From NCBI RefSeq assembly GCF_003970675.1, contig NZ_CP034562.1:3880001-3944000 (forward strand): a stretch of 64,000 nucleotides of DNA, given 5' to 3'. The notes below the pieces were generated by a model, which had not been told where the DNA came from, did not search any database, and worked only from the letters and a program-made list of their open reading frames with translations. Position 1 is the stretch's first letter, and each line of letters begins with the position of its first letter. This DNA comes from Flammeovirga pectinis (lineage in GTDB: Bacteria; Bacteroidota; Bacteroidia; Cytophagales; Flammeovirgaceae). Of this stretch, positions 2,525 to 3,772 are shown one piece after another. Both the position numbers and the translations under genes were made by a program.

Positions 2525-2566
2525 AATAATCCCCTTTACAGATTAGAATTTGTAAAGGGGATTATT
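2525..2566. terminator. Bidirectional terminator between aroE and mazG-like gene
   Basis: A perfect 16-bp inverted repeat (2525-2540 and 2551-2566, with the core CCCCTTTACA) has a 10-nt loop. It sits 19 bp past the aroE stop and just before the end of the convergent gene, so it can serve both transcripts. There is no long U tract, so it may work partly as a 3'-end stabiliser. Confidence 0.75.
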
Positions 2567-2990: not shown

Positions 2991-3009
2991 AAAAAAAGCC
3001 CTCATGGGC
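2991..3009 (-). terminator. Intrinsic terminator of the micro-gene array
   Basis: Read on the minus strand this is GCCCATGAGGGC followed by seven T residues: a 4-bp GC-only stem, a tetraloop and a U tract. A second hairpin with an 8-bp stem (3035-3042 and 3050-3057) lies just upstream. Together they give the micro-gene transcript a clear 3' end before the MazG-like gene. Confidence 0.7.
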
Positions 3010-3066
3010 ATCACTGTCTTAATTTTATATACATGACTTTCTACTTTTTAGAAAGTCGGGAATGTT

Positions 3067-3198
3067 CTAAGCAGAACGCTTAACATTACCCTTTATCTCT
3101 TTTGAGATTACTTCTTTTGTTTTCTTCTGATCTACTGCGATCATAACTGGAAAACCTGTTGCTGTCATTGTGACAATCATTTTTTTATTATTTTTCAT
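3067..3198 (-). CDS. Micro-gene A: 43-aa peptide, divergent last member of the tandem array
   Basis: The reading frame from ATG (3198) to TAG encodes 43 aa. It contains MIVTMTATGFPVMI, clearly homologous to the core of the three 24-aa peptides upstream, then continues with a Lys-rich tail (VDQKKTKEVISKEIKGNVKR). The core aligns with the other copies through synonymous changes (ATT/ATC, GTC/GTA, ACA/ACG, GGT/GGC) and Val/Ile swaps, as expected for a translated sequence. It has no signal peptide and no known domain I recognise. It is the promoter-distal member, followed by a hairpin and terminator. The function is unknown. Confidence 0.6.
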   Translation of the reverse strand: MKNNKKMIVTMTATGFPVMIAVDQKKTKEVISKEIKGNVKRSA

Positions 3199-3208
3199 AT
3201 TTCTTAAT

Positions 3209-3283
3209 TTATTTTGATGTTTTAATTACGATTGGAAAGCCTGTTGCTGTCATCGTTACGATTGTGTTTTCTCTGTTTTTCAT
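3209..3283 (-). CDS. Micro-gene B: 24-aa peptide of the tandem array
   Basis: ATG (3283) to TAA encodes 24 aa: MKNRENT, then the core IVTMTATGFPIVI, then KTSK. The peptide is identical to that of micro-gene C. An A/T-rich leader reading AAATTTAAGACA stands directly before the ATG and recurs before copy D. The peptide has basic ends and a hydrophobic Thr/Ile/Val middle with a central Gly-Phe-Pro. It is too short for a folded enzyme. It could be a signalling peptide, a membrane-active peptide or the precursor of a modified peptide; none can be chosen from the sequence. Confidence 0.6.
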   Translation of the reverse strand: MKNRENTIVTMTATGFPIVIKTSK

Positions 3284-3299
3284 TGTCTTAAATTTTTAA

Positions 3300-3374
3300 T
3301 TATTTTGATGTTTTAATTACGATTGGAAAGCCTGTTGCTGTCATCGTTACGATTGTGTTTTCTCTGTTTTTCAT
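3300..3374 (-). CDS. Micro-gene C: 24-aa peptide of the tandem array
   Basis: ATG (3374) to TAA encodes the same 24-aa peptide as micro-gene B, with core IVTMTATGFPIVI. The start lies 91 bp from that of B and 92 bp from that of D, so the array has a regular period. The leader before the ATG (AAATTTAAGAAATT) is a variant of that before B and D. The three 24-aa copies are nearly identical in DNA, which points to recent duplication or gene conversion. Confidence 0.6.
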   Translation of the reverse strand: MKNRENTIVTMTATGFPIVIKTSK

Positions 3375-3391
3375 AATTTCTTAAATTTTAA

Positions 3392-3466
3392 TTATTTAGT
3401 TGTTTTAATTACAATTGGAAAGCCTGTTGCTGTCATTGTTACGATTGTGTTTTCTTTGTTTTTCAT
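3392..3466 (-). CDS. Micro-gene D: 24-aa peptide, first (promoter-proximal) member of the array
   Basis: ATG (3466) to TAA encodes MKNKENT, the core IVTMTATGFPIVI and KTTK. Compared with B and C the codon differences give Lys for Arg and Thr for Ser, plus silent changes (ACA/ACG, ATT/ATC). This pattern supports real coding rather than chance open frames. The first 43 bp upstream are A/T-rich and contain the repeated leader sequence. No partner enzyme, transporter or immunity gene is visible within several kilobases. Confidence 0.6.
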   Translation of the reverse strand: MKNKENTIVTMTATGFPIVIKTTK

Positions 3467-3772
3467 TGTCTTAAATTTTAATATTTAAATTTTGTTTTCA
3501 TTATTATTACACGACAAAGGTGGGATAAAGTTTCGAATTATTATAGGGCATTTATACAATTAAAGTCAAAATGAACAAAATATTAAAAGAGTACATTTAT
3601 ACACTTTATTATATTTTATTCTGTTTCGACTTTGTTTTTTGATATAAAAGTATGGAAGTGTATTTACATCTTTTCTTAGAACATCATAAGTGTCTAAGGA
3701 TACACTTCTAAAAATCTTTTATATTAAATAATTGTTAAAGATTTTATTTATTTGAATCGGGTATAATTTCAT
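3467..3772. other. Intergenic region upstream of the micro-gene array
   Basis: The 306 bp hold no gene I can support. They are very AT-rich. One structured element is visible: GAAGTGTAT at 3655-3663 pairs with ATACACTTC at 3700-3708, enclosing a second inverted repeat (TTAGA 3676-3680, TCTAA 3693-3697). It could be the 3' end structure of the YbjT-like gene or a control element for the array; there is no U tract on either side. Confidence 0.5.
3515..3522 (-). promoter_or_regulatory. Possible -7 element for the micro-gene array
   Basis: Read on the minus strand this is CACCTTTG, one mismatch from the Bacteroidota -7 consensus TAnnTTTG. It would place transcription start about 40-45 nt upstream of micro-gene D. 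I see no convincing -33 element at the usual spacing, so this is weak. Confidence 0.3.

What the first reader, a model, noticed from the sequence alone, without database searches (positions are those of the whole stretch)
3067..3466. Tandem array of four micro-genes with a shared IVTMTATGFPIVI core
Four ATG-to-stop frames of 24, 24, 24 and 43 codons lie head to tail on the minus strand with a period of about 91-92 bp for the three short ones. All share MxxxENT-like starts (A differs) and the core IVTMTATGFPIVI or a close variant. The differences between copies are largely synonymous or conservative (Arg/Lys, Ser/Thr, Ile/Val), each ATG has the same A/T-rich leader, and a terminator ends the unit. 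I know of no family with this core. This looks like a small translated gene array, possibly signalling, membrane-active or modified peptides. It is the strongest candidate for an undescribed system here.
Basis: partly seen in the sequence, partly recalled or inferred. Interest (0 to 1): 0.8.

Follow-up and report, generated by a model that had tools for sequence, protein, structure and literature searches.

The report
Translated micro-peptide array in Flammeovirga
Four very short genes in a row make tiny related peptides that appear in all nine Flammeovirga genomes examined, are kept by natural selection, and seem to be switched on together with a secreted protein and small-RNA-like genes; what the peptides do is not yet known.

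Summary
Minus-strand ORFs of 24, 24, 24 and 43 codons lie at 3067-3466, with 91-92 bp between the short ones. They behave as real genes. The array stands at the same place in 9 of 9 held Flammeovirga genomes, as 35 copies with no stop inside. Within-clade dN/dS is 0.205 over 15 pairs. No convincing relative was found outside the genus, and no Pfam, NCBIfam, PHROGs or PADLOC family fits.

New here: the array's promoter carries a box code, AAGTGT-N8-ACACTT plus half-sites. The palindrome also stands before 19 of 19 close DUF3244 secreted-protein genes and 8 inferred sRNA-like genes. Together these make 36 of the 42 such palindromes in nine genomes. A conserved 3' element follows 23 of 27 DUF3244 genes and ends the sRNA-like transcripts. 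So the array looks like one arm of a genus-wide regulon, built rather like CpxP/CpxQ.

The 43-aa peptide is predicted, at modest confidence, as a beta-hairpin plus helix. Membrane-toxin and RiPP readings are disfavoured. My best guess is cytosolic hairpin effector peptides with one shared partner. Selection on the peptides and the shared promoter code are well supported; peptide function is inference.

The parts
3392..3466 (-). micro-gene 1, 24 aa
3300..3374 (-). micro-gene 2, 24 aa
3209..3283 (-). micro-gene 3, 24 aa, same peptide as gene 2; G005 has one short gene fewer
3067..3198 (-). micro-gene 4, 43 aa, same hairpin core plus a conserved C-terminal tail (KE-IKG-VK-A in this genome)
3515..3522 (-). 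promoter-like CACCTTTG block, in 9 of 9 arrays; 437-549 nt from here to the terminator
   Evidence: the Bacteroidota-type -7 reading (TAnnTTTG) is recalled
3540..3569 (-). alternative sigma-70-like site TTGACT-18-TATAAT (11 of 12); 7 such sites in the region against 5.3 (sd 2.1) in shuffles
3688..3707 (-). palindrome AAGTGT-N8-ACACTT
3656..3661 (-). third half-site, ACACTT on the minus strand
3600..3620 (-). AATAAAATATAATAAAGTGTA block with the fourth half-site; the pattern has one other perfect match in the genome, before a DUF3244 gene
3723..3739 (-). TTAACAATT..TTAA block about 32 nt upstream of the palindrome
3035..3057 (-). hairpin after the last stop codon (GACTTTCT..AGAAAGTC); a hairpin of differing sequence is predicted here in 9 of 9
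2991..3009 (-). terminator-like hairpin GCCC-AUGA-GGGC and U-run

Best explanation
This is a polycistronic mRNA of about 0.45-0.55 kb that encodes three or four micro-proteins, specific to Flammeovirga as far as searched. Shown by comparison: the ORFs are under purifying selection as proteins, and the promoter region carries the same palindrome-and-half-site code as the secreted DUF3244 genes and sRNA-like genes of the genus. Inferred: one activator binding AAGTGT/ACACTT switches on the three classes together, as in an envelope or surface stress regulon, and the peptides are its cytosolic protein arm. Each peptide would form a short beta-hairpin with a T-x-T-G-[FY]-P turn and bind one common partner. 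The tandem copies would raise the dose, and the fourth gene's C-terminal tail would add a second contact. The signal, the activator and the partner are unknown.
For: Array at the same locus in 9 of 9 Flammeovirga genomes. 35 copies, none with a stop inside in a search that reads through stops; starts, stops and core in one frame while spacers vary from 5 to 35 nt. dN/dS 0.205 over 15 within-clade pairs; synonymous share 57% against 23% under uniform change, binomial P about 7e-11. Boxes at identical positions (-187, -173, -141, -86) in 9 of 9 arrays, against 0.27 half-sites expected per 420 nt of the window. 36 of 42 genus-wide palindromes lie before arrays (9), DUF3244 genes (19) or sRNA-like genes (8). 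In the own genome only the array and one DUF3244 promoter match AATAAAATATAATNAAGTGTA without mismatch. AlphaFold hairpin 5-11/17-23 with mean pLDDT 90 for residues 11-20. Core positions T-3, G0 and P+2 invariant in 35 of 35 peptides.
Against: No expression data. The regulator is unknown, and the stress reading rests on analogy with Cpx. The array box spacing (-187, -173, -141, -86) differs from that of the DUF3244 genes (near -198, -184, -121, -97, -53). The tool's backward-read control of the palindrome also gives 27 sites in nine genomes. The TTAACA block is at 30-32 nt in only 14 of 27 non-array promoters, and in neither DUF3244 promoter of the own genome. The structure model has pTM 0.31 and rests on six sequences, with no PDB fold match at E<=0.001. 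The sRNA-like element shows no preferential pairing with the array mRNA.
Confidence: 0.5

Rival explanations
1. The RNA is the functional product (a regulatory or sponge RNA) and the ORFs are incidental.
For: Shared promoter code with sRNA-like genes; a hairpin is predicted between the last stop and the terminator in 9 of 9, with differing sequence.
Against: dN/dS about 0.2 and frame kept in 35 copies; AT-rich RNA (GC 0.27-0.29); no preferential pairing with the sRNA-like element.
Confidence: 0.08
2. Secreted or exported signalling or antimicrobial peptides.
For: Short, cationic (net charge +2 to +8), multi-copy.
Against: I see no signal sequence by eye; I recognised no exporter or modification gene near the array (ORFs of at least 90 aa; only those matching window genes were identified). 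No immunity gene was searched for.
Confidence: 0.12
3. Tandem type I toxins like Ibs/Ldr.
For: Tandem tiny ORFs, known for that class (recalled).
Against: Maximum 19-residue Kyte-Doolittle mean is -0.01 to 1.27 over 35 peptides, low for a membrane helix (usual cut-off near 1.6, recalled). The polycistronic layout with 5-35 nt spacers leaves little room for an antisense gene per copy; antisense transcripts were not tested for.
Confidence: 0.05
4. Leader peptides of an attenuator for the downstream mazG-like gene.
For: A mazG-like gene is the next same-strand ORF of at least 90 aa in 9 of 9 genomes; Thr/Ile/Val-rich ORFs stand before two predicted hairpins.
Against: Distance from terminator to mazG runs from about 80 nt (G000) to about 1 kb (G010), and in G010 an opposite-strand ORF of 263 aa lies between. 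Four leader peptides with a conserved C-terminal tail are not needed for attenuation. Alternative RNA folds were not tested.
Confidence: 0.1

Closest known systems
Cpx regulon of E. coli: cpxP mRNA and its 3'-UTR sRNA CpxQ (PMC4817254; abstract and section list seen)
   Same: An envelope protein gene whose mRNA 3' end yields an sRNA; here DUF3244 genes have a conserved 3' element and share a promoter palindrome with the array.
   Different: No homology is claimed and none was tested. Here there are several DUF3244 genes, free-standing copies of the 3' element and a micro-peptide array. No signal or regulator is known and no sRNA has been shown to exist.
Tandem type I toxin genes Ibs/Ldr (search listing seen; details recalled)
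   Same: Several tiny homologous ORFs in one place.
   Different: These peptides are not strongly hydrophobic, sit in one polycistronic unit, and no antitoxin RNA is known.
Lineage-restricted bacterial small-protein families (recalled)
   Same: Orphan proteins under 50 aa, conserved in one genus.
   Different: Three or four tandem copies with a shared core and a candidate box regulon.

Membership tests
protein-coding gene array | selection on encoded amino acids | tested here: met
   dN/dS 0.205 within clades (15 pairs), 0.300 among G000, G003, G006, G009 (24 pairs), 0.239 short paralogs (25 pairs)
protein-coding gene array | peptide is produced | not testable with these tools
   needs ribosome profiling or mass spectrometry
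AAGTGT/ACACTT box regulon (defined here) | N8 palindrome plus half-sites at a set distance from a CACCTTTG-like block | tested here: met
   9 of 9 arrays; 19 of 19 DUF3244 genes at 63% identity or more (near-fixed set, other spacing than the array); 0 of 8 more distant DUF3244 genes
AAGTGT/ACACTT box regulon (defined here) | same transcription factor and co-expression | not testable with these tools
   no RNA-seq or binding data held
type I toxins (Ibs/Ldr kind) | strongly hydrophobic membrane-spanning peptide | tested here: not met
   maximum 19-residue KD mean -0.01 to 1.27 in 35 peptides; cut-off recalled
type I toxins (Ibs/Ldr kind) | antisense RNA antitoxin | not tested
   no transcript data; promoter-like sites in the region, both strands, 7 against 5.3 (sd 2.1) in shuffles
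RiPP precursor array | modification or export enzymes next to the precursors | tested here: inconclusive
   none recognised among ORFs of at least 90 aa in nine 7-9 kb loci; only ORFs matching window genes were identified and the rest were not profile-searched; a distant enzyme is not excluded
Pfam / NCBIfam / PHROGs / PADLOC families | score above curated cut-off (Pfam, NCBIfam) or a significant E-value | tested here: not met
   best DUF460 E 0.034, 14.3 bits against cut-off 28; phrog_17945 E 0.051 and phrog_9273 E 0.21; none in NCBIfam or PADLOC

The most novel reading that the evidence does not exclude
A new three-part bacterial response module, found so far only in Flammeovirga: one box code drives (1) secreted DUF3244 proteins whose mRNA tails are small RNAs, (2) free copies of that small RNA, and (3) a tandem array of interchangeable beta-hairpin micro-peptides that act as multi-copy cytosolic effectors through a T-x-T-G-[FY]-P turn.
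Probability: 0.35. Interest if true: 0.8.

Novelty: new variant of a known kind. Interest (0 to 1): 0.58.

Why it matters
It is a clear case of proteins of 19-44 residues, under selection across a genus, in a phylum where small proteins and sRNAs are little studied (recalled). The shared box code gives a way in: whatever induces the DUF3244 genes should induce the peptides, so conditions, regulator and partner become findable. The sRNA-like tails suggest that the protein, RNA and micro-peptide outputs of one response evolved together.

Tried and rejected
Relatives outside the genus. In the family, 10 of 18 genomes matched at E<=1: the 9 Flammeovirga and G016 at E 0.64, one match beside what reads like an SDR gene, no array. 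In the order, 27 of 291 matched at E<=0.1: 9 Flammeovirga and 18 others at E 0.0016-0.096, each with one match. I fetched 9 of those 18 and read all nine. Two are out-of-frame stretches inside a long gene (TPR-like by eye) and the rest are single matches; none is an array. In the class, 2 of 395 matched at E<=0.01: the own genome and G582 at E 0.005 inside a 539-aa frame. In genome contigs, 33 stretches matched a pattern and 5 were confirmed, all Flammeovirga. Phage and plasmid collections, searched with the 43-aa peptide only, gave none.

Other paths that gave nothing. The sRNA-like element does not pair with the array better than with other genes: array -6.6 to -10.7 kcal/mol, 45 background genes -8.0 to -18.3. 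Rfam gave no hit. PDB sequence and fold searches gave nothing significant (152 matches at E<=10, 0 at E<=0.001). The promoter pattern with up to 3 mismatches gave 17 hits against 10 in the control, so only the two perfect hits were used. One search scanned DUF3244 upstream regions without turning minus-strand loci; it was replaced, and only its window background count is used.

Literature, one library of open papers. No paper held both 'Flammeovirga' and 'sRNA'. One held 'Flammeovirga' and 'small proteins', four held 'Flammeovirga', 'transcriptome' and 'promoter', two held the four terms on Bacteroidetes small ORFs; by their listings none concerns this locus. 'DUF3244' occurs in two papers. 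In PMC10434189 I read two passages: as I read the table, one B. thetaiotaomicron DUF3244 gene is listed at 3.6-fold (p 0.437) and another locus at -14.6 to -10.0 (p 0.002-0.084) with iron. One search listed 6 of 35 papers and one search listed 6 of 16; of these I opened only PMC4817254 (abstract and section list).

Full report
Observation. The minus strand of 3067-3466 carries ORFs of 24, 24, 24 and 43 codons. The DNA repeat has copies 85, 91 and 92 nt apart; these are not multiples of three, so each copy is its own gene. The own genome has these four matches and no others at E<=10.

Where it occurs. The window belongs to Flammeovirga. All 9 held genomes of the genus have the array at the same place. 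It stands after a DUF2867/NmrA-type gene and before a mazG-like gene, the next same-strand ORF of at least 90 aa in 9 of 9. Eight genomes have three short ORFs plus one long one; G005 has two plus one. No array was found outside the genus among 18 family, 291 order or 395 class genomes (these sets overlap), in genome contigs (one genome for each of 84,980 species), or in the phage and plasmid collections (weak hits are told under Tried and rejected).

It is coding. A profile search that reads through stops found 35 copies in the 9 genomes, all with no stop inside. Start, core and stop lie in one frame in all 35, with lengths of 19-24 and 40-44 codons, while spacers vary from 5 to 35 nt (that script picks ORFs by the core, so it alone would not show a broken copy). 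In 15 within-clade ortholog pairs there are 43.5 synonymous and 32.5 non-synonymous changes, giving dN/dS 0.205 (genes 1-3: 0.09-0.16; gene 4: 0.29). The synonymous share is 57% against 23% expected, P about 7e-11, and 41 of 76 differences fall at third positions. These pairs leave out G003, which has no near partner, and gene 3 of the G000-G005 pair. Among G000, G003, G006 and G009 dN/dS is 0.300 (24 pairs) and among short paralogs 0.239 (25 pairs); these pairs are not independent. Codon choice in the own array is nearer to ribosomal genes than expected from background (-0.05 against a simulated -0.30, 2 of 2000 simulations as high), though single background genes reach -0.056. In clade C (G004, G007-G009; -0.20 to -0.26) it is within background. 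Thr, Val, Pro and Ala codons end mostly in A, unlike ribosomal genes.

The peptides. Anchored on G[FY]P, the Thr at -3, the Gly and the Pro are invariant in 35 of 35; Thr at -5 in 31, Thr/Ser at -1 in 34, Phe/Tyr always, Ile/Val at +3 and +5 always. Position -2 is Ala (17) or Val (2) in the 19 peptides of clades A and B (G000, G005; G003, G006, G010) and Pro in all 16 of clade C, the long ones included, although the surrounding codons differ between copies. Paralogs within a genome are on average slightly more alike (67% aa, 51 pairs) than orthologs between clades (61%, 97 pairs). This points to old homogenisation or to co-evolution with one partner. Gene 4 has a tail with invariant KE, KG, VK and A. 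AlphaFold gives a hairpin (5-11, 17-23) and a helix (24-41), mean pLDDT 66.9, pTM 0.31, and no PDB fold match at E<=0.001. Net charge is +2 to +8, and the maximum 19-residue hydropathy is -0.01 to 1.27. The 24-aa peptides were not modelled (the tool needs 30).

The regulon. The region upstream of the array holds conserved blocks in 9 of 9 genomes: TTAACAATT, the palindrome AAGTGT-N8-ACACTT, two more half-sites and a CACCTTTG block. A sigma-70-like TTGACT-18-TATAAT site at 3569-3540 is an alternative promoter. In the own genome the palindrome occurs four times: at the array, before two DUF3244 genes and before one gene that reads like a sulfatase. The pattern AATAAAATATAATNAAGTGTA has two perfect matches, the array and one DUF3244 promoter. 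DUF3244 relatives were found at 27 places in 9 genomes. All 19 with 63% identity or more carry the palindrome with a near-fixed box set; none of the 8 others has a half-site within 450 nt (mis-read two contig-end loci, L103 and L105, which one search corrects). In clade C eight more palindromes precede inferred short transcripts without long ORFs. In all, 36 of 42 palindromes belong to these three classes. The six left are near what base composition predicts (about one per genome, my estimate), although the tool's backward-read control gives 27. That control resembles a CRP site (recalled), so it may not be neutral. The TTAACA block stands 32-33 nt before the palindrome in 9 of 9 arrays, and at 30-32 nt in 14 of the 27 other promoters, but not in the two of the own genome. 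Array and DUF3244 spacing patterns are not identical.

The RNA side. AAGTAATAATTCATTTCATTTCATAC or a variant (up to 3 differences) follows the stop of 23 of 27 DUF3244 genes within 200 nt: all 19 close ones and 4 of the 8 others; a terminator-like hairpin comes next. The free clade-C transcripts end in the same element. G003, G006 and G010 each have one further copy near a DUF3244 gene that I did not study. With up to one mismatch the 26-mer is in 9 of 9 Flammeovirga and 0 of 9 other family genomes, with 0 control hits. Rfam has no match. It does not pair preferentially with the array mRNA. The array mRNA itself has a predicted hairpin between last stop and terminator in 9 of 9.

How it may work. 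Shown by comparison: selection on the peptides and a shared promoter code. Inferred: one activator, an envelope or surface signal, and cytosolic hairpin peptides with a common partner. The nearest precedent in design is cpxP/CpxQ, where one stress-induced transcript gives a periplasmic protein and an sRNA (PMC4817254, abstract). No homology to it is claimed.

Verdict. The membrane-toxin and RiPP readings are weak, and function remains open.

Noticed in passing
L065:2580-2660, L066:2700-2790, L129:1880-2470: Conserved 3' element AAGTAATAATTCATTTCATTTCATACTT with a terminator-like hairpin after 23 of 27 DUF3244 genes and at the end of free-standing short transcripts: an sRNA-like family, absent from Rfam and, among the 18 family genomes searched, found only in Flammeovirga.
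   Followed up: partly
L129:1480-2460; L130:1150-2200; L131 and L132 (minus strand): Two tandem box-controlled short transcripts (inferred) without long ORFs in each of four clade-C genomes; the first of each pair has a variant start block (ATATTTG in G007, G008 and G009).
   Followed up: partly
G000:C2:1049730, G003:C3:172768, G004:C222:50183, G009:C96:13125, G009:C127:212275, G009:C160:219462: Six palindromes outside the three classes; the G000 one lies just before a gene that reads like a sulfatase, the G009:C160 one lies near a DUF3244 gene; the others were not examined.
   Followed up: partly
G000:C2:219318-219851 (L108): A third DUF3244 paralog of the own genome matches with one TGA inside and has no boxes upstream.
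   Followed up: no
window 2525-2566: Near-perfect 20-nt inverted repeat between two convergent genes (shikimate-dehydrogenase-like, name recalled, and mazG-like), probably a two-way terminator.
   Followed up: no
window 3067-3466: Unusual codon choice in the nine arrays taken together: 82% ACA for Thr, 79% GTA for Val, 81% CCA for Pro, yet 45% ATC for Ile; not matched by the first 24 codons of 45 window genes.
   Followed up: partly
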